Assembly (NCBI RefSeq): GCF_000025485.1
Contig: NC_013851.1
Coordinates: forward strand, 3,406,001 to 3,470,000
Length of the DNA: 64,000 nucleotides
Source of the DNA: Allochromatium vinosum DSM 180
Lineage (GTDB): Bacteria > Pseudomonadota > Gammaproteobacteria > Chromatiales > Chromatiaceae
Direction of reading: 5' to 3'
Shown: one piece after another, positions 4,789 to 56,234 of the stretch
Layout: the number at the start of each line of letters is the position of its first letter
How positions within the stretch are numbered: position 1 is the first letter of the stretch
Program-made: the position numbers and the translations under genes
The notes under the pieces: model-generated
What the model was told of the DNA's origin: nothing
Database searches by the model: none
Seen by the model: the letters and a program-made list of their open reading frames with translations, nothing else

Positions 4789-4802
4789 GGAGCGGCGGCC
4801 GG

Positions 4803-5354
4803 TCAGTGCGAGCGGACCAGAGCCGACTCGACCGCGTCGCGCCGTTCACGACCCGCGAGCAACTCGATGAGCGCGAGCGCGAAATCCATGGCGGCCCCTG
4901 GGCCGCGTCCGGTGACGACCCGGCCGTCGATCACGACGGCTTCATCGATCAGGTTCAAACGCGGGAAGTCCTCGGGCTTCACGCAACCCGGATAGCAGGT
5001 CGCCTGTTTGCCGTCGAGCAGCCCGGCGCTGGCCAGCGCCCTGGGCGCGGCGCAGATGGCTGCCGTATAGGCCCCACGCTCGGCGTGACGGCGCAGGATG
5101 GCGCAAACACGCGGGTCGTCCTCCAGATACTGTGCACCCGGCAATCCGCCCGGCAGGACGACCATGTCGAAGTCCTGATCGGCGACCGCCTCCAGCGTGG
5201 TGTCGGGCAACAGCACGGTGTCACGGCTGGCCTTGACCGGACCCTCGGTCAGACCGGCGGTCACGACCGTGATCTCGGCGCGGCGCAGCAGATCGATGAT
5301 GGTGACGGCTTCGAGTTCTTCGCAGCCCTGGGCGAGTGGAACCAATACGCGCAT
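4803..5354 (-). CDS. yajL: DJ-1/PfpI family protein (YajL-like)
   Basis: A 183-residue cytoplasmic protein of the DJ-1/ThiJ/PfpI superfamily, of which YajL is the closest model. The nucleophile-elbow motif is AAICAAP with the reactive cysteine at residue 101. The N-terminal strand is VLVPLAQGCEELEAV with the conserved glutamate that supports that cysteine. The family is linked to protection from oxidative and carbonyl stress; the exact reaction is debated. It sits in the minus-strand run envC-ctpA-yajL-transferase-gspE. Confidence 0.85.
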   Translation of the reverse strand: MRVLVPLAQGCEELEAVTIIDLLRRAEITVVTAGLTEGPVKASRDTVLLPDTTLEAVADQDFDMVVLPGGLPGAQYLEDDPRVCAILRRHAERGAYTAAICAAPRALASAGLLDGKQATCYPGCVKPEDFPRLNLIDEAVVIDGRVVTGRGPGAAMDFALALIELLAGRERRDAVESALVRSH

Positions 5355-5446
5355 TGCGGATACTCCTGCATGGCATGGTGTCGAATGACGGCGCCGAGGT
5401 TGCCGGGGTCCGGCACGCCTCGGTGTGCGGTCGTTGAATGGGTGAC

Positions 5447-6766
5447 TCAGGGTGTGGCCACCGTGCCGAGGATGTTCAGCCCCTTGAGCACGTTGAGCGC
5501 CTCGGAGAGCTGGAAGTCCTCGACGGCGAGCGGCAACGGCTCAGGCTCGGTCGGTTCGTCGGTTGCGGGCGCCTGCTCATCGAGATGCCGCACCAGATCG
5601 GCCTCCTTGAGCGAGCCGAGTCCGGGATCGGCCAGCGGCTTGAACTCACCGCGCTCCAGGGCGATGTCGGGCGCGATGCCATGGGCCTGGATCGAGCGCC
5701 CGGACGGCGTGTAATAGCGCGCCGTCGTCAACTTCAGGGCCGAGTGCTCGTCGATCGGCACAATGGTCTGGACCGACCCCTTGCCGAAGGTCTGAGTGCC
5801 CATGACGATGGCGCGCCGGTGGTCTTGCAGCGCGCCGGCGACGATCTCGGACGCCGAGGCGCTGCCGGCATTGACCAGAACCACGATGGGCGCGCCGTCG
5901 AGCACGTCGTCCGGGCCGGCCTTGAAGCGCATCTGGCTGTTCTTGACCCGGCCCTCGGTGTAGACGATCAGGCCATCGGTGAGAAAGGCATCGCTGACGC
6001 CGACCGCGCCATTGAGCACGCCGCCGGGATTGTTGCGCAGATCGAGCACCAGGCCCTTGAGCCGACCCGCGTTGGCCTGCTTGAGTTCATCGATCGCCTT
6101 GAGCATGTCGTCGGTGGTGTGGGCCTGGAAGTGCGTCAGACGCACATAGCCGAATCCGGGTTCCAGCGTCCGGCTCTTGACGCTCGCGACCTGGATGACG
6201 GCACGCTCGAGGACGACCTCGAAGGGCTTGTCGTCGGTGCCGCGCAGGATGCTGAGCCGGATCTCGGTGCCGGGCTTGCCGCGCATCAGCTGCACCGCTT
6301 CGTTCAGACTCAACCCTTTCACCGGCTTGTCGTCGATGCGGATGATCATGTCGCCGGCCTGGAGTCCGGCACGCTGGGCCGGGGTGTCGTCGATCGGCGC
6401 AATCACCTTGACGAAACCATCCTCCATGCCGACCTCGATACCGAGTCCGCCGAACTCGCCGCTGGTGCCGACCTGGAGATCACGGTATTCCTCGCCGTCG
6501 ACATAGGACGAATGCGGGTCGAGTCCGGACAACATGCCGCGGATGGCGTTCTCGATCAGGGATTTGTCATCGATCTCCTCGACATAGTCCTCCTTGATGC
6601 GTCCGAAGACGTCGGCGAAGGTCCGCAGCGCGTCGAGCGGCAGGTCCGATTCGGTGGTCGCCGTGGAGCGAACCGACTCGGATTCGATGGCCGCAGGTTC
6701 TTCGGCACAGGCGACGGCGCCGATCAGCAGGCCAAGACACAGCGGCGGAACGAATTGAAAGCGCAT
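5447..6766 (-). CDS. ctpA: Carboxy-terminal processing protease (S41 family)
   Basis: A 439-residue S41 peptidase of the CtpA/Prc type that trims C-terminal ends of periplasmic proteins, often cell-wall hydrolases or their regulators. The chain has an N-terminal signal segment (FVPPLCLGLLIGAVACAEE), a PDZ domain (IEVGMEDGFVKVIAPIDDTP onwards) and the catalytic core. The core holds the nucleophilic serine in NAGSASASEIVAGAL and the general-base lysine in GTQTFGKGSVQT. I chose the ATG at 6766, which is preceded by GGGA at a good distance and begins directly with the signal peptide. An in-frame ATG at 6850 would put 28 non-signal residues in front. It follows envC by 80 bases, a conserved gammaproteobacterial pairing. 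Confidence 0.9.
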   Translation of the reverse strand: MRFQFVPPLCLGLLIGAVACAEEPAAIESESVRSTATTESDLPLDALRTFADVFGRIKEDYVEEIDDKSLIENAIRGMLSGLDPHSSYVDGEEYRDLQVGTSGEFGGLGIEVGMEDGFVKVIAPIDDTPAQRAGLQAGDMIIRIDDKPVKGLSLNEAVQLMRGKPGTEIRLSILRGTDDKPFEVVLERAVIQVASVKSRTLEPGFGYVRLTHFQAHTTDDMLKAIDELKQANAGRLKGLVLDLRNNPGGVLNGAVGVSDAFLTDGLIVYTEGRVKNSQMRFKAGPDDVLDGAPIVVLVNAGSASASEIVAGALQDHRRAIVMGTQTFGKGSVQTIVPIDEHSALKLTTARYYTPSGRSIQAHGIAPDIALERGEFKPLADPGLGSLKEADLVRHLDEQAPATDEPTEPEPLPLAVEDFQLSEALNVLKGLNILGTVATP

Positions 6767-6846
6767 GATCGTCGATTCCCAGCGAACGGTGGCTAGATGG
6801 AGGCAAAAAACGGATTTGGACGTGTTGTGGCGAAGGATCGCATGTT

Positions 6847-8175
6847 TCACGTCGATTCGACAGATTCGGCTGGCATGGACCGGACGGGCCAGTTATGACT
6901 GGAACGCTGGTCGTAGCGGCCATGGCCCGCGCACCAGGCCGCTGGGTCCTGCGGGCGTCCGTTGTGCCGGATGGCGAAATAGAGCACGGGCTCCTGGCGT
7001 CCGCCACTCTTGCCGCTGAGTGCGATGGGGTCGCCGGTCGCAACCCATTCGCCGACCTCGCGCAACAGCGCCTCGTTGTGACCATAGAGGGTCATGTAGC
7101 CGTCACCATGGTCGATCACGATCAGCAGACCGAAGCCGCGCAGCCAGTCGGCGTGGATCACGCGCCCATCCTTGACCGCGCGCACCTCTTCGCCCTCATG
7201 CGCCGCCAGCAGCACCCCGTCCCAGTCGATCTCGGAGGACTCCTTGCGCGTGCCGAAGGACGCGATGACGCGATTCTCCAGGAGCGGCCAGTCGAGCCGA
7301 CCCTTGAGCGTGCCGAAGGGATCGCGCTGGATGTCGAGTTCGGCGCGGATCTGAGCATGCTGACGCAGATGCTCGACCAGCAGCTTCAATGAGTCGGCGT
7401 CGCGCTTGAGCGTCTCCAGGGTCTCGGCGCGGCTGGTGATGGTGGCCTCCAGGTCGCGCAAGACCTGGGCACGACGCATCTTGGCCTGTTCGAGCCGCAG
7501 GCGCGTGGCCTCCTGACTGCGCGCCAGTTCGGCCAGCCGACGGGCCTCGTCCTCGGCGTCGCGGGCGAGCCGGTCGAGACGTTCGGCGCGCTCCTGTACA
7601 GACTGGATGCGCTTCATGCGCTCGCGATTGAAATAGGCGAAGTACGACATGACGCGGCTGGCGCGGGTCGGATCCTGCTGGTTGAGCAACAGACGCAGAC
7701 GATCGGCGCGCCCCATGACATAGGCCGTGCGCAACAGATCAGAGAGCAGGTCGAGTTCGACGCCGAGCGCGGCGCGCTCTTCGACCTGACGCGCGCGCAA
7801 CTCGCCGGCGACGCGATTGTGTTCGGCGACCAGACGCTCCAGTTCGCGATTGGCCAGCGACAGTTCGGCGACGTTGCGCTCGCGTGCCTCCAGCTCCTCG
7901 ATCAGGGCACGCCGATCGGCATGACGGTCGCTCAATTCGCGCCCGATGTTCTGCATCTGGCGCTCGATCTGGCCGAGATCGCGTTGTCGCTCGTCCAAGG
8001 CCGGGTAGTCGTTCGGTTGAGCGAGCGCCAGAGCGCCGGTCGCCAGGAGAGCGGCCAGCCCTGCCGTCAGGATGGCGTTCAACGTCCGCCCATGTGCGAA
8101 CGAACCAGACGGCGGTCGGCGCGCCGGCACTCCACAGGGGACGATCCGATTCGATCCGGGCATGGTACGAGACAT
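6847..8175 (-). CDS. envC: EnvC-like murein hydrolase activator (M23 domain)
   Basis: About 442 residues. An N-terminal hydrophobic signal (LNAILTAGLAALLATGALALAQ) is followed by a long Glu/Arg-rich coiled coil. The last 120 residues are a LytM/M23 domain (VIHADWLRGFGLLIVIDHGDGYMTLYGHNE). EnvC proteins activate the septal amidases AmiA/AmiB in the periplasm under FtsEX control. Active M23 enzymes have HxxxD and HxH zinc ligands; here the HGDGYMTLYGHN stretch retains some of them but the set looks incomplete, as in activators. The start is uncertain: ATG at 8175 or 8163 both lie before the signal, neither with a strong ribosome site. A frame further upstream would overlap the arsR operator. 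Confidence 0.85.
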   Translation of the reverse strand: MSRTMPGSNRIVPCGVPARRPPSGSFAHGRTLNAILTAGLAALLATGALALAQPNDYPALDERQRDLGQIERQMQNIGRELSDRHADRRALIEELEARERNVAELSLANRELERLVAEHNRVAGELRARQVEERAALGVELDLLSDLLRTAYVMGRADRLRLLLNQQDPTRASRVMSYFAYFNRERMKRIQSVQERAERLDRLARDAEDEARRLAELARSQEATRLRLEQAKMRRAQVLRDLEATITSRAETLETLKRDADSLKLLVEHLRQHAQIRAELDIQRDPFGTLKGRLDWPLLENRVIASFGTRKESSEIDWDGVLLAAHEGEEVRAVKDGRVIHADWLRGFGLLIVIDHGDGYMTLYGHNEALLREVGEWVATGDPIALSGKSGGRQEPVLYFAIRHNGRPQDPAAWCAGHGRYDQRSSHNWPVRSMPAESVEST

Positions 8176-8247
8176 CGATGGTGTCCGAGTAATTGGAGAA
8201 GCGCGACCGTCGACGCGGGTGAATGCTTCGCAGCCGGCAGGAAAGCG

Positions 8248-8269
8248 TTTATCATTGTACGGTGATAAA
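8248..8269. promoter_or_regulatory. Palindrome TTTATCA-N8-TGATAAA, candidate ArsR-family operator
   Basis: A perfect 7-bp inverted repeat (8248-8254 and 8263-8269) lies in the gap between divergent envC and the ArsR-family gene, 18 bases before the chosen start. Symmetry, AT-rich arms and position fit autorepression by the adjacent regulator. No experimental link is available. Confidence 0.55.
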
Positions 8270-8287
8270 TTGATCAGATGCGATTCC

Positions 8288-8653
8288 ATGGCAGGTAACC
8301 TGAGTCATCCCGTTCGTCCAGTGTTGAATCTCCGCGATGCGGGTGAGGAGATGGATCTGTTTGCCGACGACGCCGACATCGAGCGCGCCTCGCGTTCGCT
8401 CAAGGCGATGTCGCATCCTTTGCGTCTGAAGATCCTCTGCACGCTCGGCGACCAGGAGATCAGCGTCCAGGAGATCGTCGAACACGTCGGCACCTCGCAG
8501 AGCAACATCTCGCAGCATCTGGCGATCCTGCGCGACAAGGGTATCCTCGCCTCGCGCAAGGACGCCAATCGTGTCTACTATCGCGTCAGCGACAATCGCA
8601 CCCTGCAACTGATCGGGATGATGCGCGAGGTCTTCTGTCATCACACCCGCTAG
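8288..8653 (+). CDS. ArsR/SmtB-family regulator with SqrR/BigR/HlyU-type cysteine pair
   Basis: A 121-residue winged-helix repressor. The core starts with AMSHPLRLKILCTLGDQEIS and contains the recognition helix TSQSNISQHLAILRDKG and wing RKDANRVYYRV. It has no metal-site CxC motif. Its only two cysteines are C51 in helix 2 and C117 in the last helix. Their 66-residue spacing equals that of the sulfane-sulfur sensors SqrR (C41/C107) and HlyU (C38/C104), where persulfides link the two. An adjacent rhodanese fits a reactive-sulfur role. An alternative start at 8351, next to GAGGAG, gives a 100-residue protein with the same core. Regulation is probably through the palindrome at 8248-8269. Confidence 0.88.
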   Translation: MAGNLSHPVRPVLNLRDAGEEMDLFADDADIERASRSLKAMSHPLRLKILCTLGDQEISVQEIVEHVGTSQSNISQHLAILRDKGILASRKDANRVYYRVSDNRTLQLIGMMREVFCHHTR

Positions 8654-8701
8654 GGCGAGCCGCCCAGCCCGATCCCCATTCCGAACGAGACGGCTCACAC
8701 C

Positions 8702-9124
8702 ATGTCACAACTCATCGAGTTCATCGGTAATCACTGGTTCCTGTTCCTGGCCCTGATCGTGATCCTGGGCCTCCTGACCTACAATCTCATCGTCGGCAGC
8801 AAGGGCAGCGTCGGGCCGCTCCAGGCCACAGAGATGCTCAATCATCGCGAGGCGGTCATCATCGACGTGCGTCCGGCAGCGGACTATGCGCGCGGGCACA
8901 TCATCAACGCCCTGAACATCCCGATGAACGGCTTCAACAATCAACTGGCGACCCTGAACAAATACAAGGGCCGGCCCATCATCGTCAATTGCCGGTCCGG
9001 CGCCCAGTCCTCGGTGGCCTGCGCGCATCTGCGCAAGGCCGGGTTCGAAGAGGTCTACAACCTCCAGGGCGGCATCATGGCCTGGGAGTCGGCCAACCTG
9101 CCCCTGACACGCAAGAAGCGCTGA
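8702..9124 (+). CDS. yibN: Membrane-anchored rhodanese-like protein (YibN-like)
   Basis: A 140-residue protein with one N-terminal transmembrane helix ([21 protein letters not shown]) and a single rhodanese domain. The active-site loop is NCRSGAQSS, with the catalytic cysteine starting a CRSGAQ loop typical of single-domain sulfurtransferases. Upstream are [17 protein letters not shown] and the family's ALNIP motif. It probably carries persulfide sulfur in or at the membrane. It opens the conserved yibN-(grxC)-secB-gpsA order; grxC is missing here. Confidence 0.9.
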
Positions 9125-9197
9125 TCCCGACCGGATCGGGCGTCCAGCGTTCACCAGCACCCGAACCCTCCATTCACTCACAGATCCAGGTACCGGC

Positions 9198-9671
9198 ATG
9201 ACCGAAGAGCAGCAGACCAGCGAACGTCAATTCTCCGTACAGCGCGTCTACACCAAGGACGTCTCCTTCGAGTCGCCCAATGCGCCCGAGATCTTCCGGG
9301 GCGAGTGGAAGCCGCGTCACGAGCTCAACCTCAACACCAAGATCAACCAGCTCGACGCCACCGTCTACGAGGTGGTGCTCGCGGTCACGGTGACGGTCAA
9401 GGTCGAGGACAAGACCGCCTTCCTGGTCGAGGTGCAGCAAGCCGGTATCTTCACCGCCCAGGGCTTTTCCGAGGAGGATCTCGGGCCGTTGCTCGGCGCC
9501 TACTGCCCCAACCTGCTCTTCCCCTATGCGCGCGAGGTCGTCTCGGATCTGGTGGTCAAGGGCAGCTTCCCGCAACTGGTGCTCCAGCACGTCAACTTCG
9601 ACGTGCTCTTCGCCCAGCATCAGCAGCAGGCCGCCGAACAGGCCGGCGACGCCAAGCCGGTCCAGCACTGA
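9198..9671 (+). CDS. secB: Protein-export chaperone SecB
   Basis: A 157-residue tetrameric cytosolic chaperone that keeps preproteins unfolded and hands them to SecA. Recognisable family strings are [22 protein letters not shown] at the N-terminus, [16 protein letters not shown], and the core [20 protein letters not shown]. The length equals that of other SecB proteins. Its stop overlaps the upstream region of gpsA, which begins three bases later. Confidence 0.96.
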
Positions 9672-9673
9672 CC

Positions 9674-10678
9674 ATGCGCACGCCGGCCCGGATCGCTCTG
9701 CTCGGCCCCGGTTCCTGGGGCACGGCCCTGGGGCTGCAACTGTGCCGCAACGGTCACGAGGTGCGGCTGTGGGGGCATGAGACGGCTCAGATCGAGGCGA
9801 TCCGCCGCGATGGCGAGAATCGTCACTTCCTGCCCGGTCATCCGCTCCCGGCCGGGATGCACCCGACGGATTCGCTCGACGCAGCGCTCGACGAGGCCAC
9901 CGACTGTCTGGTGGTCGTGCCGAGCCAGGCCTTCCGGCTGGTCGCGCGCCAGTTGGCCGAGCGTCTGCCCGCTGATTTTGGCGTCGCCTGGGCGACCAAG
10001 GGCCTGGACGTGGCCAGCGGTCAACTGCTGCACACGGTCGCTCTGGAAGAACTCGGTGAGCGGCCGCTGGCCGTGGTCTCGGGTCCGAGCTTCGCCGGCG
10101 AGGTCGCGCGCGAACTGCCGACAGCGGTGACGGTCGCCTCCAACCAGCCGGAGTTCGCGACCCGCTTCGCGACCCTGCTGCATGGTTCGACCTTTCGCGC
10201 CTATACCAGCCCGGACATGGTCGGGGTGGAGATCTGCGGCGCGGCCAAGAACGTGCTGGCCATCGCCACCGGCATCGCCGATGGTCTGGGGTTCGGGGCC
10301 AATACGCGCGCGGCGCTCATCACCCGTGGACTGGCCGAACTGATCCGGGTCGGGACCGCGCTCGGCGGTCGACCCGAGACCTTCACCGGACTGGCCGGGC
10401 TCGGGGATCTGGTGCTCACCTGCACCGACGATCAGTCGCGCAACCGGCGCATGGGGCTGGCGCTGGCGCGCGGCCGGACCGTCGACGAAGCCAAGGCCGA
10501 GATCGGACAGGAGGTCGAGGGTGTCATCACGGCCCTGGCCGTCCATCGTCTCGCCGCGCGGCTCGGGATCGAGATGCCGATCAGCGAGCAGGTCTATCGC
10601 GTGCTCCACGAAGGCGTCTCGCCGGCCGAGGCCACGCGCGCCCTCCTGGAGCGCGAGCCCAAGCCGGAGTTCGGCTAG
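9674..10678 (+). CDS. gpsA: Glycerol-3-phosphate dehydrogenase (NAD(P)+)
   Basis: A 334-residue enzyme that reduces dihydroxyacetone phosphate to sn-glycerol-3-phosphate for phospholipid synthesis. The N-terminal dinucleotide fold has IALLGPGSWGTALGLQL. The family signatures are ATKGLD, SGPSFAGEVARELPTAVTVAS and the catalytic GAAKNVLAIATGIADGLGFGANTRAALITRGL, followed by GLAGLGDLVLTCT. I used the ATG at 9674, three bases after the secB stop. Its end overlaps the end of trmL on the other strand by four bases. Confidence 0.96.
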   Translation: MRTPARIALLGPGSWGTALGLQLCRNGHEVRLWGHETAQIEAIRRDGENRHFLPGHPLPAGMHPTDSLDAALDEATDCLVVVPSQAFRLVARQLAERLPADFGVAWATKGLDVASGQLLHTVALEELGERPLAVVSGPSFAGEVARELPTAVTVASNQPEFATRFATLLHGSTFRAYTSPDMVGVEICGAAKNVLAIATGIADGLGFGANTRAALITRGLAELIRVGTALGGRPETFTGLAGLGDLVLTCTDDQSRNRRMGLALARGRTVDEAKAEIGQEVEGVITALAVHRLAARLGIEMPISEQVYRVLHEGVSPAEATRALLEREPKPEFG

Positions 10679-11151
10679 GCCCTTATTTCAGCCGCGCCGG
10701 CGAATCCCTGCCGGCGCCAGGCCTCGTAGAGCACGACGGCCACGGCATTGGAGAGATTGAGACTGCGGTTGCCCGGACGCATGGGGATCTGGAGACGGTG
10801 CTCTTCGGAGACGGACTCCAGCACGGATTCCGGCAACCCGCGGGTCTCCGGGCCGAACAGAAAGGCATCCCCCGGCTGGAACTCCAGATCGACATAGGGC
10901 ACACGCCCGCGTGTGCTGACGGCCAGCAGCCTGGGCTGTTCCAGGGTCGCGAGACAGGCCGCCAGTGACGCATGTGTCCGCACGTCCGCCCACTCCCGAT
11001 AGTCCAGTCCGGCGCGCCGCAACTGCCGGTCGTCGAGCGAGAAGCCGAGCGGCTCGATCAGATGCAGACGCGCGCCGAGATTGGCGGTCAGACGCATGAC
11101 ATTGCCGGTATTGGGCGGAATTTCCGGCTCGTAGAGGATGATCTCGAACAT
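10675..11151 (-). CDS. trmL: tRNA (cytidine(34)-2'-O)-methyltransferase
   Basis: A 158-residue SPOUT-class methyltransferase that 2'-O-methylates the wobble base of tRNA-Leu isoacceptors. The conserved elements are PEIPPNTGNVMRL at the N-terminus, FGPETRGLP in the middle and the knot region IPMRPGNRSLNLSNAVAVVLYEA at the C-terminus that binds S-adenosylmethionine. The compact length without extra domains is typical of TrmL. It is convergent with gpsA. Confidence 0.94.
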   Translation of the reverse strand: MFEIILYEPEIPPNTGNVMRLTANLGARLHLIEPLGFSLDDRQLRRAGLDYREWADVRTHASLAACLATLEQPRLLAVSTRGRVPYVDLEFQPGDAFLFGPETRGLPESVLESVSEEHRLQIPMRPGNRSLNLSNAVAVVLYEAWRRQGFAGAAEIRA

Positions 11152-44495: not shown

Positions 44496-45341
44496 TCAGG
44501 TCGGCGGGGGTGACGATAGAGACGCCGGCCGGCGCAACGACGCGATGACAGGTCCGGTCTCGGGCCGCACGCCACGCCACAGCCAAAAGGATTCGGCCGC
44601 CTGCTCGATCAGCATCCCCAGACCGTCGAGCACACGCGCCGCACCATGTTCGCTGCCCCAGCGACAGAAGGGCGTGGGCCGATCGCCGTAGAGCATGTCA
44701 TAGGTCCAGCCGTCGGGCGCGAGGCAGTCGTCCGGAATCGCCGGCACGGCGTCGGCCAGTCCCGCCGACGTGGCATGGATGATGAGGTCGAAGCGCTCGC
44801 CCGCCAAGCCGTCGAACCCACAACCCTCGACCGGACCGAGCGCGCGACCGAGCCGTGCCAGCTCCAGCGCCTTGGACGCCGTGCGGTTGGCGATGACCAG
44901 ACGCGCCAGTCCGGTCCCAAGCAGCGGCTGGAGCACGCCGCGCGCCGCCCCGCCCGCGCCGAGCATCAGGACGCGCGCACCCGCGAAGTCGAAGCCGTGG
45001 TTGTCGGTCAGATCGCGCACCAGTCCGACTCCATCGGTGTTCTCGCCCCGCAGCCGGCCATCGTCGAGCCGGATGAGCGTATTGACCGCGCCGGCGAGTT
45101 CGGCGCGTGCACTGCGCTCGTCGGCCAGCGCCCAGGCCTGCTCCTTGAACGGCACGGTGACGTTCAGCCCCAGTCCGCCGGACTCCAGGAAGCGGCGCAC
45201 GTCGCCGGCGAAGTCGTCGAGCGCGCCGAGCAGGCGCCCGTATTCCAGATCCTGCCCGGTCTGGCGCGCGAAGGCGGCGTGGATGACGGGCGACTTGCTG
45301 TGGGCGATGGGATGGCCGATGACGGCGTAATGGTCGGTCAT
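44496..45341 (-). CDS. aroE: Shikimate dehydrogenase
   Basis: A 281-residue NADP-dependent enzyme reducing 3-dehydroshikimate. The N-terminus [21 protein letters not shown] is the classic AroE start, [16 protein letters not shown] holds the catalytic lysine, and [13 protein letters not shown] the aspartate. [16 protein letters not shown] and [11 protein letters not shown] form the NADP site. It lies in a minus-strand run between the photoreceptor and the oxidoreductase genes, separate from aroK and aroB on the plus strand. Confidence 0.95.
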
Positions 45342-45413: not shown

Positions 45414-48400
45414 TCAGCCGAATTCGGCCAGCGCCTGATCGGGCGGGATCGGACGCGACCACAGATAGCCCTGCCCCCAGTCGCAGCCGATCTCGGCGAG
45501 CCGTTCGAGCTGGCGCGGCGTCTCGATGCCCTCGGCGATCACCTCCTTGCCGATGGAGTGGGCCATGGCGATCATGCCGGCGACCAGGTTGCGGTCGCGC
45601 GAGGACTCGATACCGCTGATGAACTCGCGGTCGATCTTGAGGCTGCTGATCGGCAGCTCGCGCAGATAGGCCATGGAACTGAAGCCGGTGCCGAAATCGT
45701 CGAGCGACAACTGGATGCCGCCACGATGGATAACGTTCAGCGTGGATTTCAGGCTCGGCGTCATGCGCAACAGCATCGACTCGGTGATCTCGATCTCGAT
45801 GAGATCCGGCGGCACGTCGGCGGCATGCAGATCTTCCAGCAAACGGCGCGCGAAGCCGCGCGCCTCCAGATCGGCCGCCGAGACGTTGATCGCCAGCCGC
45901 GCCTCGGTGCCATTCTGCTCGAGATGCTGGCGCAGCCGGCGGATGGCCAGGCGCAGCACGGCGGCCGTCACCGCGCCGATCAGGCCGTTGCGCTCGGCGG
46001 CCGGGATGAAGTCTCCCGGCATGATCAGGGTTCCATCCTCGGTGCGCCAGCGCGCCAGCACCTCGAAGCGCGGTGTCCCGGCACGGGCGGCGATGGCGAT
46101 CTGCGGCTGGAGCAGGATCTCGACGGCGTCCATGGGCGAGCGCCCGAGCACGGCACGGTCGATCTCCAGACGCTTCAGCGCCCGTCGCTCCAGGTCGCTG
46201 TCGAAGTGGCTGGCGCGGTTGCGCCCCGCTTCTTTGGCATGGTAGAGGGCCAGATCGGCCTGCTTGAGCAGCTCGCCCGGCTCGGAGTCGGGGCCGCCCA
46301 TGGCCAGCCCCAGCGAGCTGGTGATGCTGAAACGATCTTCGCCGACGACGATGGCGCGACGCAGGGCTTCGACGATCCGCTCGGCCCACAGCGAGGCGAC
46401 GGCCGTGTCCGTGATGTCGGGCAGCAGGAGCGCGAACTCGTCACCGCCGAGACGCGCCACCAGTCCGGGTTCGGGCAACTCGGCGCGAATGCGCTTGGCC
46501 ACGGCGCACAGCAGCACATCGCCCTTGTCGTGACCGAGGGTATCGTTGATGGTCTTGAAGTGGTCGATGTCCATGAGCGCAACCGCAAATCCCTGCCCGG
46601 TACGCCGGCAGTTCTCGATCACCTCGCCGAGCGCCTCGCGAAAGCGCGCTCGGTTCGGCAGCTCGGTGAGCGCGTCGTGCAGAGCGCGATGGCGCATCTC
46701 CTCGCGTGACTGGTGCAATTGATCGCGCTGACTGGCCAGTGACTGGGCGAGCCGCTCGAAGTGCGCGGCATTGGCGACGATGACCCGTTGGATGAGGTTC
46801 TTGAGCGCCAGCCCGGTGGCCAGCGATACCGCCGACCAGGGCAGCGAATGATGGGTGCGCTCTTCGCGCCAGACCTGGAAGTCGCGGGTCGGCCAGCCGA
46901 GCGGACGTTCGCCGTCACGGATGGAGAACGGCAGTGCGGTGGGATCGCCGCCCCAGTCGACCGTGTATTTGACCCGCTGGCGACCGAACAGCAGGATGTT
47001 CTCGCGCTGCTCGTCGATGAAGATCACCAGCACGCCGGCGAGCCGGTCCGGATAGGCCGCCGCCGGCTCGAACTCGCCGGACAGACAGTCGGTGTGCCAG
47101 ATCGGGCCGGGCCGGGTGCGCAGAAAGGCCAGCAGCTCATCGACCCACTCGGGGGCCAGACTGCAATTCTGCCCGAAGAACAGCGGCTGACCGCGACGGT
47201 AGATCTGCGCCATGTCGGCATCGACCAGTTCGCACAGCTTGCGCTCCTTGCCGATGAAACTGTCTGGAAAGGGCTGCTCGACGTCGAACCCGCCGACGAT
47301 GGAGTTCACCCGCGCCATGCCGAGCTGGGTGGCCAGGTTGCGCTCGCGCTCATCGATCAGGGCGACCCGGGCCGCCAGACAGCTCGCCAGTTCGATGAGT
47401 CGGCGTCTGACCGGGACCGTCACCGGATGGGGCGCGCGATGATGGAAGATCACCAGCCCCCAGAGCCGATCGTCCTGCATGATCGAGAGCGACATCGAGC
47501 CATTGACGCCGAAGCGCTGGAGATAGTTGCGATGGATGGGTGACTGGGCGCGCAGATGGGCGATGCCGATGTCGATGCTGTCGGGAGCCAGCGCGCGGCT
47601 CAGGAGCGGAATATCGGGGTGATCGCGGCTCGGCGCGTAGCGCATGGGCGTTTCGCGATAGAGCGCGCGCGCCTGACGCGGGATGTCGGTGGCCGGATAA
47701 CGCAGCCCCAGGATCGAGGGCCAGGTGTCCGGTTCCAGACTCTCGGCGATCACCACGCCCGAGTCGTCGGGATCGAAGCGATAGACCACGACTCGCTCGA
47801 AGCCGGTCAGATAGCGAAAGGCCGCGACGGCCTCCTGACCGACCTGTCTGACATCGTCGCTCGCGCGCAGCCGCCGCTGGAATGATTCGACATCGAAGCC
47901 GCGCAGACGCACGTCCATCTCCATCTCGCCGTGCGGCTCGATCTCCAGCAGCAGCCGATCCCGCCAGCGATGCAGACGCACATCGAGCGGCAGCTCGCCG
48001 CGCGCGGTCCGGACCAGGAAGAAGGACGGCTGATACGCGGCCGTCTCCGGGTCGGCCGTGAGGACGGCATGCAGCTCGGCTGCGCCCGCGACCGGCAAGG
48101 CCCGCGACAAGGGGGCGTCGAGCAGCGTCTCGGCGTGAAGACCCAGATACATCTCGGCATTGGCGCTACAGGCCAGAATGTGGTGCGTCTCGGGATCGAC
48201 CACCAGCAGACAGCCGAAGGGCTGGATGGCACCACAGGTGCTGATGGGTTCGCGATCGCATTGCGAGAAGTCGAAGGAGACCGCCGAGAGCGCGGCCATG
48301 CTCTCGCAGAACTTGCCGGCGATCAGCTCATACGCGACGCCTTCGTTGCGCGGCGGCAGACGATTCTTGGGCTGAACGATGATCCAGAACTCGCCCGGAC

Positions 48401-48758
48401 GGTCCGAGGCGCGCATGGTGATGCGCACCCGCACCGGGTCCATCTTGAAATCGAACACGAACTCGAAGGTCGTCTCCAGACATCCGGTCAGGACACCGCG
48501 CCGGAAGCGTCCGTAGAACTCCGGCACCACGGTGCAGGGGGCAACCTCGGAGAAGAAATTGCGCCCGAGGACGGACTCTACCTCACGTTGCGAAATCACC
48601 GACTGTGCACGACTATAGAAGAGGATACGTCCTTCGGCGTCGACACGAATGGTTCCTGCGGGCAGCCGATCGAGTTGCTCCTCGGTGAGGATGTCGAGCT
48701 GACGTGGGTCGTGGATGTCGATGGCGTCTTCGAGATTGATCGGTTCGATTCGGTTCAA
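45414..48758 (-). CDS. ppd: PYP-bacteriophytochrome-GGDEF-EAL hybrid photoreceptor (Ppd-like)
   Basis: An 1114-residue cytoplasmic sensor. Residues about 22-132 are a photoactive yellow protein domain: NFFSEVAPCTVVPEFYG contains Cys75, the p-coumarate attachment site, with Tyr48 and Arg58 at the positions of Tyr42 and Arg52. Next is a bacteriophytochrome PAS-GAF-PHY unit with biliverdin Cys167 in CDREPIS and the GAF strings YPATDIP and SPIHRNYL. A GGDEF domain (motif intact, about 771-775) and an EAL domain (EVL at about 898, plus DDFGTGFSS and AEGIET) follow. It should tie blue and red/far-red light to cyclic-di-GMP synthesis and breakdown. Glu46 of PYP is replaced by Gln (residue 52), and Thr50 by Ser. 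A p-coumarate ligase gene lies directly upstream. Similar hybrids are known in Rhodospirillum centenum (Ppr) and Thermochromatium (Ppd). Confidence 0.93.
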   Translation of the reverse strand: MNRIEPINLEDAIDIHDPRQLDILTEEQLDRLPAGTIRVDAEGRILFYSRAQSVISQREVESVLGRNFFSEVAPCTVVPEFYGRFRRGVLTGCLETTFEFVFDFKMDPVRVRITMRASDRPGEFWIIVQPKNRLPPRNEGVAYELIAGKFCESMAALSAVSFDFSQCDREPISTCGAIQPFGCLLVVDPETHHILACSANAEMYLGLHAETLLDAPLSRALPVAGAAELHAVLTADPETAAYQPSFFLVRTARGELPLDVRLHRWRDRLLLEIEPHGEMEMDVRLRGFDVESFQRRLRASDDVRQVGQEAVAAFRYLTGFERVVVYRFDPDDSGVVIAESLEPDTWPSILGLRYPATDIPRQARALYRETPMRYAPSRDHPDIPLLSRALAPDSIDIGIAHLRAQSPIHRNYLQRFGVNGSMSLSIMQDDRLWGLVIFHHRAPHPVTVPVRRRLIELASCLAARVALIDERERNLATQLGMARVNSIVGGFDVEQPFPDSFIGKERKLCELVDADMAQIYRRGQPLFFGQNCSLAPEWVDELLAFLRTRPGPIWHTDCLSGEFEPAAAYPDRLAGVLVIFIDEQRENILLFGRQRVKYTVDWGGDPTALPFSIRDGERPLGWPTRDFQVWREERTHHSLPWSAVSLATGLALKNLIQRVIVANAAHFERLAQSLASQRDQLHQSREEMRHRALHDALTELPNRARFREALGEVIENCRRTGQGFAVALMDIDHFKTINDTLGHDKGDVLLCAVAKRIRAELPEPGLVARLGGDEFALLLPDITDTAVASLWAERIVEALRRAIVVGEDRFSITSSLGLAMGGPDSEPGELLKQADLALYHAKEAGRNRASHFDSDLERRALKRLEIDRAVLGRSPMDAVEILLQPQIAIAARAGTPRFEVLARWRTEDGTLIMPGDFIPAAERNGLIGAVTAAVLRLAIRRLRQHLEQNGTEARLAINVSAADLEARGFARRLLEDLHAADVPPDLIEIEITESMLLRMTPSLKSTLNVIHRGGIQLSLDDFGTGFSSMAYLRELPISSLKIDREFISGIESSRDRNLVAGMIAMAHSIGKEVIAEGIETPRQLERLAEIGCDWGQGYLWSRPIPPDQALAEFG

Positions 48759-48821: not shown

Positions 48822-50018
48822 TCAATCCCAGTCGGTGAGCTTGCCGAGCGCCGAGCGTGGCAGACTCGGGCCGAGCGTGATGGAGCGCGGCCGCTCCGGA
48901 GCCGACAACTGCTCCGCGAGCCAGATCTGGAGCCGTTCCGGGAGGTGAGCCGGGTCGCTGCAACGTGCGCTGGGCACGACGAATGCTTTCAGGCGCACAT
49001 GTGGCTCACGGCCATCGGGACGCACCAGCGCTTCGTCGACCTCGGGGTGGCGCTCGATACAGGCCCGCACGCGCTCGGGGAAGACGTTGATCCCGCCAAC
49101 CTGGACCGCTCCATCGCGTCGCGCGAGTATCAGAATGTGTTCGGTGTCGAGCCACTGGAAACGATCGGGGAGTTCCAGCGACAGCGGTTTGCCCGCGACA
49201 CCTGGACGCCGGATACGTCCCGGCGCTTCAGGATCAGGCGACCAGTGCGGCAGCAGACGGAAGGGCGCCTCGGGGGCTTCGCGCCAACCGACGCCGGCCG
49301 TTTCCGATGAGCCATAGATCTCGATCGCCCGGACGCCGCCGAGCGCCTGGAACCGCTGCCAGAGTTCGGGCGGGCAAGGACTGGTGGAGCTGAGGACCAC
49401 CACATCGGACGCCATCTCCAGGGGCGCCCGCGTGGCCAGATCGAAAAAGGCCGGATGGCCCAGCACCAGATCGCCAGCGCGTGCCTGGCGCAGGACGGCT
49501 CCAGGCAGCGTCCGGCGCGTGTCGAGCACCGGGATGCTGAGATGTGCCGGCAACATGAAGGCGAACAGAAAACCGTAGATGTGGTGGCACGGCACGGCGC
49601 GCAGGATGCGCCGGCGCTCACCCAGGAGCGTGGCGAAATAGGCGACCTCCTGCTCCAGCAGGTCCATGTCGTGGAGACACAGCTTCGGCTGACCGGTGGA
49701 GCCTGAGGTCTGGAAGCCGATCGCGCCGTCCTGGCAGGCGCGGCTCTCCAGCACGATCTCGACCCAGTCGGACAGACGGCGACGGGTCGTCAAGGCCGCC
49801 TCGTGCCCCGTCTCGTGCAGATGGAACTGGATGGCGACCATGGTGGCCAGATCCAGGAACTCCAGCGAATCGAGTTCCAGCGCCCCGAGATCCGGATCGG
49901 GGGCGCGCAGGCGGGCCGCGTCCTGGAGTCCGGGCCGCAAACGCGCCAGCTCCGCCTGGATCAGGTCGAGCAGCAGCGCCTGGACGCCGCTGGGGTTCCA
50001 CCAGGGTTTCAGGGCCAC
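48822..50018 (-). CDS. pcl: p-Coumarate:CoA ligase for PYP chromophore, with ACP-like N-terminus
   Basis: A 398-residue adenylate-forming enzyme. The P-loop FQTSGSTGQPK is at 102-112, IEIYGSSETAGVGW is the A5-like motif and LDTEHILILARRDGAVQVGGINVFPERVRACI the hinge and A8 motif. The usual first 150 residues of the AMP-binding domain are missing. In their place, residues about 30-90 look like an acyl-carrier-type helical unit (GALELDSLEFLDLATMV, with a DSL serine). This shortened form matches the ligase family that activates p-coumarate for photoactive yellow protein. It starts with GTG after GAGG and lies 63 bases before the photoreceptor gene. Confidence 0.82.
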   Translation of the reverse strand: MALKPWWNPSGVQALLLDLIQAELARLRPGLQDAARLRAPDPDLGALELDSLEFLDLATMVAIQFHLHETGHEAALTTRRRLSDWVEIVLESRACQDGAIGFQTSGSTGQPKLCLHDMDLLEQEVAYFATLLGERRRILRAVPCHHIYGFLFAFMLPAHLSIPVLDTRRTLPGAVLRQARAGDLVLGHPAFFDLATRAPLEMASDVVVLSSTSPCPPELWQRFQALGGVRAIEIYGSSETAGVGWREAPEAPFRLLPHWSPDPEAPGRIRRPGVAGKPLSLELPDRFQWLDTEHILILARRDGAVQVGGINVFPERVRACIERHPEVDEALVRPDGREPHVRLKAFVVPSARCSDPAHLPERLQIWLAEQLSAPERPRSITLGPSLPRSALGKLTDWD

Positions 50019-50053
50019 CGCGACAGCCTCGCCCGACGTCGACGCGTCTGGCC

Positions 50054-52176
<2,123 letters not shown>

Positions 52177-54277: not shown

Positions 54278-56044
54278 TCAGTAGGGAGTCGGACGATTTT
54301 CGTAGTCGGCATAAGCGTCCGAATCAGCCGTGCTGGGCGGGAGCCTGGTGCCGTGCCAGGTGAAGTTGTAGGGGCTGGTATAGGAGCCTTCTGGTACTTC
54401 GACGACACCGCCGTATTGGCTGCAACTACAACGGGCGAGTGTTTGATAGGTCACGCATTTTTCAGTGACCTGCCCGTCAGGCCCAAATACTGGGCAGTTC
54501 GGCGGATAACGCAGTCTTCCATCCGCACCATCGGCAGATAAGCAACCAGGCTCGATACCAAAAGCACAGTCGGCAATCTGGTTCCTGCAGACCAACCCCA
54601 AGGCACTATCGCTGCAATCATCCGTCGGGATATCACAGGAATTGCCGCTTTCGCATGCACATTGAGCGCCAAATCCAGAATTCGTAACATACCGATAGAC
54701 TCTGCAGGGCGCCTCGAAGAGCCGCTTGTGATTGACGCGGATGTAATAATCACCGGCATTCCGGAGTCCGAAACGGAAGACCCGGTTGGGATCGCCTGAA
54801 TTGTTCGTATTGATTGCCAAAATGGGTGTCAGGTTTTCGCGCAGCTCACCGGATTCATAGCGATTGGCCATGCTTTGATCATAGACTTCGACGAGCCAGT
54901 TACCCAAAGGGCATTCCTCTTTCTCACAGAATGTAAGGGTGACGATCTCGTTTCCGGGACTCGTATATTTAAACCAGTCATCCTCACCCTGGCCCCATAC
55001 AGCCGTATCTCCCTCTGGTATCGGGGTGTTGAAGGTCAGGTTGATCACGCCATACATGGTTACGCCATTGGCCAAACGATTACTTTGGCTCGGCAGGTCG
55101 TTTCGCTCCATCTCGGTATCATAGAAACCAACGGTCGGCTGTGTGCCGCCAAGAGGCGAGTCTTGCACGAGAGCCGAAACGGAATAGGCATGAGCGTTTA
55201 TTTCGTTTCCCGCAGCTGGCTGAACCCGGATGTAATAGGTTCCAGCCAAGCCGAGGGTGACACTATAGGTCAGTGAATCCGGTGTCGACTGAACGGCACT
55301 TCTTGCATTGGAATCGAAGCTGGCAAAGACGTTTCCTGCGGCATCCAGAACCGAGATATTCCAGAGACCAGGATTGCCTTCCGCGAGATTCGCTCCCTCC
55401 AACCATTCTGGAACCGAGAAGGTAATCAGGAGGTTTTGGTTGAGTTTGGTGGTGGCTGTATAAAAATAGTCCCGATCGTTTAGAGCATAGAGCTGACCCC
55501 AAAAACTGGTGCCAGGCTCAAGCGGATCGGCTGTGACAAAGCTGTCATTGGGTTCAGTTTCGCCAACGAGGGCATCTGGAATACAGGAGGCCAGGGGAAT
55601 GTCGCAGCTTTGTGGATCAGCAATACAGGCCGCGAGCTGTGTGGCGAGTCCACGTGCGTAACCATCCGCGTCGCCACGGGTGTAACCCTGAGCATCGCCA
55701 TCAGTGAAGCCGCGCCACCAACCCTGGCCATCGCCATCGGTGAAGCCGCGCCACCAACCCTGGCTGTCACCATCGGCAAACCCACGCCACCAACCCTGGC
55801 TGTCACCATCGGCAAATCCACGCCACCAACCCTGGTCATCACCATCGGCCAAGCCGCGCCACCAGCCCTGAGTATCGCCATCGGTCTTACCCTGATCGTA
55901 GCCAAGGTCATAACCATCGGCAAGTCCTTGATTATATTTGTCCGTACAGGAATCTTGCGCAGCAGAACCACCGAGCGTGGCTGAATTCGCCATGAGCGGT
56001 AACAGCAACACCAGTCCAGTGATGGGATAGAGTAGAGATTTCAT
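54278..56044 (-). CDS. Secreted Gly-X3 tetrad-repeat protein with PPC-like domains
   Basis: A 588-residue exported protein. The signal peptide is LLYPITGLVLLLPLMANSA. From residue 37 to 132 every fourth residue is glycine: 24 tetrads in a row, grouped in 12-residue units such as GWWRGFADGDSQ. After a cysteine-containing linker come two domains resembling bacterial pre-peptidase C-terminal (PPC) domains: NDRDYFYTATTKLNQNLLITF ... GTYYIRVQPA and EDDWFKYTSPGNEIVTLTF ... GDYYIRVNHK. A cysteine-rich C-terminal region follows (CACESGNSC, CSDSALGLVC, CSCSQYGG). I do not recognise the whole protein. The ATG at 56044 directly precedes the signal. Base composition is less GC-rich than the neighbours. 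Confidence 0.85.
   Translation of the reverse strand: MKSLLYPITGLVLLLPLMANSATLGGSAAQDSCTDKYNQGLADGYDLGYDQGKTDGDTQGWWRGLADGDDQGWWRGFADGDSQGWWRGFADGDSQGWWRGFTDGDGQGWWRGFTDGDAQGYTRGDADGYARGLATQLAACIADPQSCDIPLASCIPDALVGETEPNDSFVTADPLEPGTSFWGQLYALNDRDYFYTATTKLNQNLLITFSVPEWLEGANLAEGNPGLWNISVLDAAGNVFASFDSNARSAVQSTPDSLTYSVTLGLAGTYYIRVQPAAGNEINAHAYSVSALVQDSPLGGTQPTVGFYDTEMERNDLPSQSNRLANGVTMYGVINLTFNTPIPEGDTAVWGQGEDDWFKYTSPGNEIVTLTFCEKEECPLGNWLVEVYDQSMANRYESGELRENLTPILAINTNNSGDPNRVFRFGLRNAGDYYIRVNHKRLFEAPCRVYRYVTNSGFGAQCACESGNSCDIPTDDCSDSALGLVCRNQIADCAFGIEPGCLSADGADGRLRYPPNCPVFGPDGQVTEKCVTYQTLARCSCSQYGGVVEVPEGSYTSPYNFTWHGTRLPPSTADSDAYADYENRPTPY
55688..55867 (-). repeat. Five tandem 36-bp repeats coding for 12-residue Gly/Trp units
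   Basis: The five units cover residues 60-119 of the secreted protein. Each reads GWWRG, then F/L-A/T-D-G-D-x-Q. Units are near-identical in DNA (for example the repeated CACCAACCCTGGCTGTCACC on the plus strand). Flanking degenerate tetrads extend the protein-level pattern on both sides. Confidence 0.93.
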
Positions 56045-56048
56045 GGCT

Positions 56049-56234
56049 TCATTCCGTGGGTGAGCAAGCCTTGGCGAAGGAAGCAGTCGTAGTGTCGACG
56101 ATACGATTGTGTCGTAACGGATACGCCGAATTGAGTTTATCCCAAAACCCCTGGGGATCAAGCCTAACATCGAAGCCGCAAACCAAGACCATATGTTCGG
56201 TCTCTGCCACAGGAGCGTCTCGGCAGCTCATCAT
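56049..56234 (-). CDS. Possible small ORF upstream of the Gly-X3 gene (61 aa)
   Basis: A possible 61-residue protein starting MMSCRDAPVAETEHM, with GGGAACAA before the start. It ends four bases before the Gly-X3 gene, as in an operon. No signal, domain or known motif is seen, and codon use is not decisive. The rest of the gap 56045-56369 holds no other convincing gene; the promoter of the Gly-X3 gene must lie here too. Confidence 0.25.
   Translation of the reverse strand: MMSCRDAPVAETEHMVLVCGFDVRLDPQGFWDKLNSAYPLRHNRIVDTTTASFAKACSPTE

What the first reader, a model, noticed from the sequence alone, without database searches (positions are those of the whole stretch)
45414..48758. Dual-chromophore PYP-phytochrome sensor fused to both GGDEF and EAL domains
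The sequence shows a photoactive yellow protein domain with chromophore Cys75, a bacteriophytochrome unit with biliverdin Cys167, and intact GGDEF and EAL motifs in one chain. PYP-phytochrome hybrids are known but rare (Ppr in Rhodospirillum centenum, Ppd in Thermochromatium). The open question is whether blue and red light push cyclic-di-GMP in opposite directions through the two output domains.
Basis: partly seen in the sequence, partly recalled or inferred. Interest (0 to 1): 0.85.

Follow-up and report, generated by a model that had tools for sequence, protein, structure and literature searches.

The report
Purple bacterium's two-colour light sensor, Ppd
This gene encodes a known type of purple-sulfur-bacterial light sensor that joins a blue-light and a red-light detector to enzymes that make and destroy a signalling molecule; the new twist is that the genome shows no known enzyme for making the blue-light pigment.

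Summary
Window 45414-48758 (minus strand) encodes a 1,114-residue PYP / PAS-GAF-PHY / GGDEF / EAL protein with PYP Cys75, bilin Cys167, GGDEF and an E-V-L form of EAL. It is a Ppd, a kind already described from Thermochromatium tepidum and other Chromatiaceae; 24 of 210 genomes of the order carry one. So it is a new member of a known kind. Blue and red acting oppositely through separate output domains is neither supported nor tested here.

What is added: (1) In 0 of 23 genomes of the order whose only PYP is a hybrid was an aromatic-amino-acid ammonia-lyase (TAL/HAL/PAL family) found, yet 21 of 23 keep the dedicated p-coumarate ligase (pCL); outside the order, 7 of 7 PYP genomes with pCL have such a lyase. 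The hybrid that lost its PYP cysteine also lacks pCL. The p-coumarate source is open. (2) pCL has an acyl-carrier-protein-like N-terminus with invariant Asp-Ser (suggestive, not statistically firm). (3) The phytochrome tongue lacks PRxSF in 22 of 22 intact hybrids. (4) The PHY-GGDEF linker has two lengths exactly 21 residues apart. Chromophore occupancy and enzyme activity need experiments.

The parts
45414..48758 (-). ppd-type gene: PYP / bacteriophytochrome / GGDEF / EAL, 1,114 aa, TTG start at 48758
48372..48695 (-). PYP domain (residues 22-129); Tyr48 = Y42, Gln52 = E46, Ser56 = T50, Arg58 = R52, Cys75 = C69 of H. halophila PYP (reference numbering partly recalled)
   Evidence: TIGR02373 1.6e-33; alignment
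48534..48536 (-). Cys75, predicted p-coumaroyl attachment; present in 21 of 22 intact hybrids
47934..48260 (-). phytochrome N-terminal PAS (residues 167-275), starting at Cys167, predicted biliverdin attachment; Cys present in 22 of 22
   Evidence: PF08446
47358..47849 (-). GAF domain (304-467); Asp358 of DIP, His409 and His439 invariant in 22 of 22
   Evidence: PF01590
46773..47276 (-). PHY domain (495-662)
   Evidence: PF00360 1.6e-22
46878..46892 (-). tongue motif P623-T-R-D-F627 in place of PRxSF
46677..46832 (-). predicted helix from PHY to GGDEF (residues 643-694; model confidence under 50 at 678-693); length differs by exactly 21 residues between two groups of hybrids
46215..46685 (-). 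GGDEF domain (692-848), RLGGDEF intact, no RxxD I-site upstream (motif recalled)
   Evidence: PF00990 2.3e-43
45450..46121 (-). EAL domain (880-1103), E899-V-L, N958, E990, D1020-D1021, K1041, E1076, Q1096 present (roles recalled)
   Evidence: PF00563 1.3e-61
48822..50018 (-). p-coumarate ligase (pCL), 398 aa, same strand, 63 nt upstream of the ppd start
   Evidence: TIGR02372 1.8e-87, 293.5 bits, cut-off 334.7
49734..49994 (-). acyl-carrier-protein-like N-terminal domain of pCL (residues 9-95), invariant Asp50-Ser51 (Ser51 codon 49866-49868) at the start of a helix
50054..51037 (-). hemB (porphobilinogen synthase), upstream of pCL; start approximate
   Evidence: NF006762 3.3e-155
44496..45341 (-). 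aroE (shikimate dehydrogenase), 72 nt downstream, possibly co-transcribed (inferred from spacing)
   Evidence: NF001310 1.2e-109

Best explanation
This is the Ppd of a Chromatiaceae species of the genus Allochromatium (probably A. vinosum). A biliverdin-binding phytochrome module drives a helical spine into GGDEF-EAL and so sets c-di-GMP turnover. The N-terminal PYP, when loaded with p-coumarate by the neighbouring pCL, is a blue-light modulator of the phytochrome rather than a second driver of one enzyme domain. Shown by sequence: domain order, both chromophore cysteines, intact catalytic motifs of both enzymes, a dedicated pCL next door, a linker whose length changes only by three heptads among 22 hybrids, no PF00221 ammonia-lyase match in the genome. 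Inferred: that both chromophores are bound, that red light acts on GGDEF (as in PadC and BphG1), that PYP tunes the phytochrome (as in Ppr), and that p-coumarate comes from outside or from an unknown route.
For: Domain hits. Cys75 kept in 21 of 22 and Cys167 in 22 of 22 intact hybrids; GGDEF in 22 of 22; E899, N958, E990, D1020, K1041, E1076 and Q1096 invariant. pCL (E below 1e-40) present in 21 of 23 hybrid-only genomes and in 1 of 183 genomes of the order without a PYP or hybrid. The one intact hybrid without the PYP cysteine (G152) is in one of the two hybrid-only genomes without pCL. Linker lengths differ by exactly 21 residues, 17 versus 5 of 22, fitting the heptad rule described for PadC linkers (PMC9587094, passages). 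Heme oxygenase (PF01126) found in 19 of 24 hybrid genomes including this one.
Against: [quoted passage not shown] this lowers my confidence from 0.5 to 0.45. The PRxSF tongue motif is absent in 22 of 22, so the phytochrome switch may be non-canonical. No PF00221 match in the genome, so PYP may be empty in cells without p-coumarate. Position 46 is Gln. G158 keeps the PYP Cys but has no pCL match (83% complete genome). The AlphaFold2 model is weak (pLDDT 72, pTM 0.42; tongue and residues 678-693 of the linker below 50). No activity or spectrum of this protein is known to me.
Confidence: 0.45

Rival explanations
1. Conditional photoreceptor: with no TAL, the PYP domain is apo unless p-coumarate is taken up from the surroundings, so blue-light sensing is gated by outside phenylpropanoids and the protein is otherwise a red/far-red c-di-GMP enzyme.
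For: PF00221 in 0 of 23 hybrid-only genomes, pCL in 21 of 23; PF00221 in 7 of 7 outside PYP genomes that have pCL. PMC12826048 names uptake as a possibility (passage).
Against: Cys75 is kept in 21 of 22, which speaks for regular use. An unknown lyase would look the same. p-Coumarate transporters were not searched for.
Confidence: 0.25
2. Two-colour antagonism: PYP controls one of GGDEF/EAL and the phytochrome the other, in opposite directions.
For: Both output domains keep their catalytic residues. Domain interaction in Ppd is not demonstrated (PMC8877833, passage), so other wirings stay open.
Against: One predicted helix joins PHY to GGDEF (part of it at low confidence) and PYP lies at the far end; I see no separate route from PYP to EAL. 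In Ppr, PYP acts on the phytochrome (passage in PMC8877833).
Confidence: 0.12
3. The phytochrome module is a poor or light-insensitive switch because the tongue has lost PRxSF; PYP is the main sensor.
For: PR.SF in 0 of 22 hybrids, whereas the three other phytochromes of this genome and the alphaproteobacterial hybrid L098 have it. The PHY score is the weakest of the four in the genome (9.3e-24 against 3.3e-46, 1.4e-44, 3.5e-41).
Against: Bilin Cys167, DIP Asp358, His409 and His439 are invariant in 22 of 22. Most hybrids show a P/S-x-R-x-F form, an altered but recurring motif rather than decay (listing).
Confidence: 0.13

Closest known systems
Ppd of Thermochromatium tepidum and other Chromatiaceae (PYP/PHY/GGDEF-EAL)
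   Same: Same domains in the same order, E46Q-type PYP, same bacterial family.
   Different: No difference in kind found. The T. tepidum PYP domain has been measured (465/358 nm, 240 s in Table 1 of PMC12826048, passage); this protein has not, to my knowledge.
Ppr of Rhodospirillum centenum (PYP/PHY/histidine kinase)
   Same: PYP at the N-terminus of a bacteriophytochrome.
   Different: Output is a histidine kinase. The Ppr-type relative L098 (Aerophototrophica) has PRASF in the tongue and its genome has PF00221 and pCL.
PadC-EAL phytochromes, e.g. BphG1 of Rhodobacter sphaeroides
   Same: N-terminal bilin Cys, DIP, GGDEF, ExL, linker lengths stepping by heptads.
   Different: PYP added at the N-terminus; the PRxSF motif, one of those that define PadCs in PMC9587094, is absent.
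4-coumarate-CoA ligase of the PYP pathway (TIGR02372)
   Same: P0002 aligns over nearly the whole model.
   Different: In the members seen, not only here, the N-terminal about 95 residues look like an acyl carrier protein; I found no mention of it (one search: listing of 4 papers; passages of one of them, PMC3992019).

Membership tests
Ppd (PYP/bacteriophytochrome/GGDEF-EAL) | N-terminal PYP domain with chromophore Cys | tested here: met
   TIGR02373 1.6e-33, Cys75
Ppd (PYP/bacteriophytochrome/GGDEF-EAL) | PAS-GAF-PHY module with bilin Cys before the PAS | tested here: met
Ppd (PYP/bacteriophytochrome/GGDEF-EAL) | C-terminal GGDEF and EAL | tested here: met
Ppd (PYP/bacteriophytochrome/GGDEF-EAL) | covalent p-coumarate and biliverdin in the purified protein | not testable with these tools
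   needs protein
PYP, TIGR02373 equivalog | curated cut-off of 143.05 bits | tested here: not met
   115 bits, 120 in the genome search; 2 of 24 hybrids of the order pass. PMC9664959 says the model has only four PYP seeds (passage).
PYP family by residues | Tyr42, Glu46, Cys69 | tested here: inconclusive
   Tyr48 and Cys75 met; Gln52 in place of Glu46, a change PMC9664959 reports for Ppd (passage)
PadC-EAL (definition in PMC9587094) | NTS Cys, DIP, GGDEF/GGEEF, EAL/ExL | tested here: met
PadC-EAL (definition in PMC9587094) | PRXSF in the PHY tongue | tested here: not met
   PTRDF here; 0 of 22 hybrids match PR.SF
Ppr | histidine kinase output | tested here: not met
pCL, TIGR02372 equivalog | curated cut-off of 334.7 bits | tested here: not met
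   293.5 bits; 0 of 210 genomes of the order pass, 1 of 11 outside
acyl carrier protein (N-terminus of pCL) | helix II starting with D-S-L and an all-helical carrier-like topology | tested here: met
   by reading the helix list, no structural superposition was made
acyl carrier protein (N-terminus of pCL) | significant match to a carrier-protein sequence or profile | tested here: inconclusive
   no Pfam family at E up to 10 for 6 members; 19 of 22 PDB hits at E up to 10 are ACPs, best E only 0.018, and 3 are T4 lysozyme (best 0.064); hhalign E 0.0058 but probability 6.4% against AcpP, E 0.46 and 0.1% against reversed AcpP
acyl carrier protein (N-terminus of pCL) | 4'-phosphopantetheine on Ser51 | not testable with these tools
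   needs mass spectrometry

The most novel reading that the evidence does not exclude
In the Chromatiaceae the blue-light half of Ppd is equipped without tyrosine ammonia-lyase: p-coumarate is scavenged, or made by an unknown route, is activated by pCL and loaded on the carrier-protein domain built into that same enzyme, and is handed from its pantetheine arm to Cys75 of PYP. Ppd would then be a photoreceptor whose blue channel depends on an outside phenylpropanoid, and PYP chromophorylation would run through a carrier protein rather than through free coumaroyl-CoA.
Probability: 0.25. Interest if true: 0.75.

Novelty: new member of a known kind. Interest (0 to 1): 0.5.

Why it matters
Ppd puts two photochromes on one c-di-GMP enzyme. 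This gene sits next to its own ligase in a genome rated 100% complete here, so the two-colour question is testable. The lack of a match to the known p-coumarate-making enzyme family in the hybrid-only genomes turns 'where does the PYP chromophore come from' into a concrete experiment. A carrier-protein domain in the PYP ligase, if real, would change the accepted picture of how PYP gets its chromophore.

Tried and rejected
Considered and rejected: (a) chance or artefact: rejected, 22 intact hybrids. (b) A novel architecture: rejected, Ppd is in print (passages of PMC12826048, PMC9664959 and PMC8877833). (c) A conserved neighbour that could replace TAL: one search clustered 432 ORFs from 40 stretches. 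Of the clusters I looked at, those recurring beside ppd or pCL across genera were pCL, hemB, aroE and a hydroxyacid-dehydrogenase-like gene, and heme oxygenase in the Halochromatium group; none is a convincing source of p-coumarate. Genus-limited and single neighbours were not annotated. aroE and hemB look positional, since in the Chromatium/Thiocystis group hemB-pCL and ppd-aroE lie apart. (d) Heme oxygenase as a constant neighbour (statement in PMC9664959): not so here; this genome's only PF01126 hit is more than 1.5 Mb away, and near the hybrid one was seen in G049 and G055 and, by homology only, in G050. (e) Foldseek with the whole pCL model returned adenylate-forming enzymes in the 50 rows shown of 1,426 and did not inform on the N-terminus. 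(f) The Ppd AlphaFold2 model was too weak for docking or pocket arguments, and no fold search was made with it. (h) Plasmid collection: one 31% hit, to residues 160-1108, without the PYP part.

PF00221 presence does not prove TAL; only absence is informative, and it means no match at E 0.001. Of the 23 hybrid-only genomes 19 are at least 90% complete (completeness column). Hybrids share ancestry, so the Fisher values (4.9e-7; 0.0017) are not independent-sample probabilities. G105 (internal deletion) and G006 (frame breaks, 14% contamination) were left out of the 22-row alignment but are counted in 24. The 25 pCL rows include overlapping or duplicate stretches of the same genomes.
Full report
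OBSERVATION. The reported interval is an open frame on the minus strand from 48758 to 45414, 1,114 residues. It starts with TTG; the nearest relative has an ATG six codons further in. Pfam and NCBIfam place PYP (22-129), PAS_2 (167-275), GAF (304-467), PHY (495-662), GGDEF (692-848) and EAL (880-1103) in order. The window's genome is G000, contig 1 of 3,526,903 bases, 3,669,074 in total. These figures are, from recall, those of Allochromatium vinosum DSM 180; the nearest named relative is A. humboldtianum, 93% identical over the whole protein.

DISTRIBUTION. A search of 210 genomes of the order with the PYP model found 24 with a hybrid and 4 with a single-domain PYP; G073 has both. Named loci are Allochromatium, Thiocystis, Chromatium, Lamprocystis, Lamprobacter, Halochromatium, Thiohalocapsa and unclassified Chromatiaceae, plus one alphaproteobacterium, Aerophototrophica, whose hybrid is PYP-PHY-histidine kinase (20 loci). 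The other 22, this one included, were aligned.

RESIDUES. Among the 22: PYP Cys in 21 (G152 has APASAMPELYG), Tyr42 equivalent in 22, position 46 Gln 17, Glu 3, Leu 1, His 1; bilin Cys in 22; GGDEF in 22. E899, N958, E990, E993, D1020, K1041, E1076 and Q1096 are invariant; D1021 is Asn in G158. This protein has no RxxD inhibitory site before GGDEF (read; the motif and the catalytic roles are recalled). Both enzymes of this protein therefore look competent.

PHYTOCHROME TONGUE. PRxSF, one of the motifs that define phytochrome-activated cyclases in PMC9587094 (passage), occurs in 0 of 22 hybrids. This protein has PTRDF, and most others have P/S-x-R-x-F. The other three phytochromes of the same genome have PRQSF, PRRSF and PRSSF, and the Aerophototrophica hybrid has PRASF. 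The change recurs through the Chromatiaceae hybrids and does not look like random decay; its effect on Pr/Pfr switching is unknown.

LINKER. From the conserved W-S/T at the end of the PHY domain to the DxLT of GGDEF, 17 of 22 have one length and 5 of 22 are exactly 21 residues shorter. PMC9587094 reports that natural PadC linkers differ mostly by multiples of seven, with -4 and +2 as the main exceptions, because they form a coiled coil (passages). A three-heptad step with nothing in between suggests that the PHY-to-GGDEF helix is under the same constraint and carries signal. The structure model shows one helix over 643-698, but with confidence below 50 at 678-693 and low overall.

CHROMOPHORE SUPPLY. 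pCL lies 63 nt upstream on the same strand. In the order, pCL (E below 1e-40) is present in 21 of 23 hybrid-only genomes; it is missing in G152, which lost the PYP Cys, and in G158, which kept it but is 83% complete. It is present in 4 of 4 genomes with a single-domain PYP and in 1 of 183 with neither (G021). Family PF00221, which holds TAL, HAL and PAL, is present in 0 of 23 hybrid-only genomes (19 of them at least 90% complete), 3 of 4 genomes with a single-domain PYP (on the same contig beside the pyp gene in all three), and 2 of 183 others. Outside the order I had 11 PYP genomes: 6 from 369 genomes drawn from the class, 4 from 398 drawn from the phylum, and Aerophototrophica. Of these 7 have pCL and all 7 have PF00221; of the 4 without pCL, 1 has it. 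G051 has a single-domain PYP and pCL but no PF00221, so the lack is not confined to hybrids. In G073 the pCL beside the hybrid is degenerate (267 aa, no TSGSTG) while the one beside the single-domain PYP and lyase is intact. PMC12826048 reports TAL in 5% and pCL in 32% of pyp operons and suggests TAL elsewhere in the genome or uptake of p-coumarate (passage); PMC9664959 suggests HAL or PAL as substitutes (passage). For the Chromatiaceae hybrids the whole-genome search finds no enzyme of that family, within its sensitivity. I did not find this stated in what I could see: search listings (30 of 78 papers, 3 of 3, 20 of 26, 2 of 2) and passages of PMC12826048, PMC9664959 and PMC8877833. The 2012 PYP review and the T. 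tepidum papers were not read.

BILIN SUPPLY. A heme oxygenase is found in 19 of 24 hybrid genomes, in three of the genus only as a partial match. Here it lies 1.9 Mb from ppd along the contig (about 1.6 Mb the other way if the contig is circular), beside an output-less 535-residue phytochrome.

CARRIER DOMAIN. pCL is short: the AMP-binding match starts at profile position 169 of 384, and in its place stand about 95 residues with D50-S51 invariant in all 20 aligned sequences and in all 25 rows. The model (pLDDT 89) shows helices 9-27, 33-38, 51-65, 73-78 and 82-95, with Ser51 opening a main helix. A profile of 16 of the 25 N-termini against PDB sequences gives 22 hits at E up to 10. Nineteen are acyl carrier proteins (three labelled SDAP1, NDUFAB1-beta or NDUAB1-beta, recalled as mitochondrial carrier proteins) and three are T4 lysozyme. 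The best E is 0.018; the four ACP alignments shown pair D-S-L with D-S-L, and so does the lysozyme one at 0.064, so it is the enrichment, not any single score, that speaks for a carrier protein. hhalign against E. coli AcpP gives E 0.0058 with a probability of only 6.4%; against its reversal 0.46 and 0.1%. Pfam finds nothing. The N-terminal profile matches 7 of 7 PYP-type pCLs outside the order (weakest 1.3e-6) and not the generic ligase L120. So the region belongs to the PYP-pathway ligases at large; that it is a carrier protein is likely, and that it bears phosphopantetheine is inference.

MECHANISM AND VERDICT. The likeliest working model is one output axis: phytochrome to coiled coil to GGDEF-EAL, with PYP modulating the phytochrome when p-coumarate is available. 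PMC8877833 cautions that domain interaction in Ppd is undemonstrated and that PYP's role may differ from Ppr (passage). Opposite action through two outputs is possible but unsupported. As an architecture this is already in print; the supply puzzle and the carrier-like domain are what deserve follow-up.

Noticed in passing
L054 (G152): 7753-10983 +: Hybrid of the Thiohalocapsa group that has lost the PYP cysteine (APASAMPELYG) in a genome that also has no PYP-type pCL match: a natural loss of the blue channel.
   Followed up: partly
L046 (G105) and L080 (A. warmingii): Hybrid gene lacks residues 312-971 and changes frame at the junction, while the adjacent pCL is intact; gene loss or assembly error.
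   Followed up: partly
L071 (G021): 7891-8838 -: PYP-type pCL, matching only residues 1-303, in a genome without a PYP match; possible relic of a lost hybrid.
   Followed up: partly
L062/L077 (G051): Single-domain PYP with pCL but no PF00221 lyase match in a 99% complete genome.
   Followed up: no
window 48822-51037 and L046, L055, L056, L068, L069, L070, L075: hemB and pCL are neighbours in two genera, also where ppd lies elsewhere.
   Followed up: partly
G000:C1:1533000-1545000 (L066): Output-less 535-aa phytochrome beside the only PF01126 heme oxygenase match of the genome; two further phytochromes are histidine kinase-receiver hybrids (L064, L065).
   Followed up: partly
window 54278-56170 (-): 630-aa ORF with tandem GDxQGWWRGFxD-like repeats (36-nt unit) and no Pfam match at E 0.01.
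   Followed up: no
L059 (G158): 4678-7983 -: Hybrid whose EAL loop reads DNFGSS instead of DDFGTG; the phosphodiesterase may be weakened.
   Followed up: no
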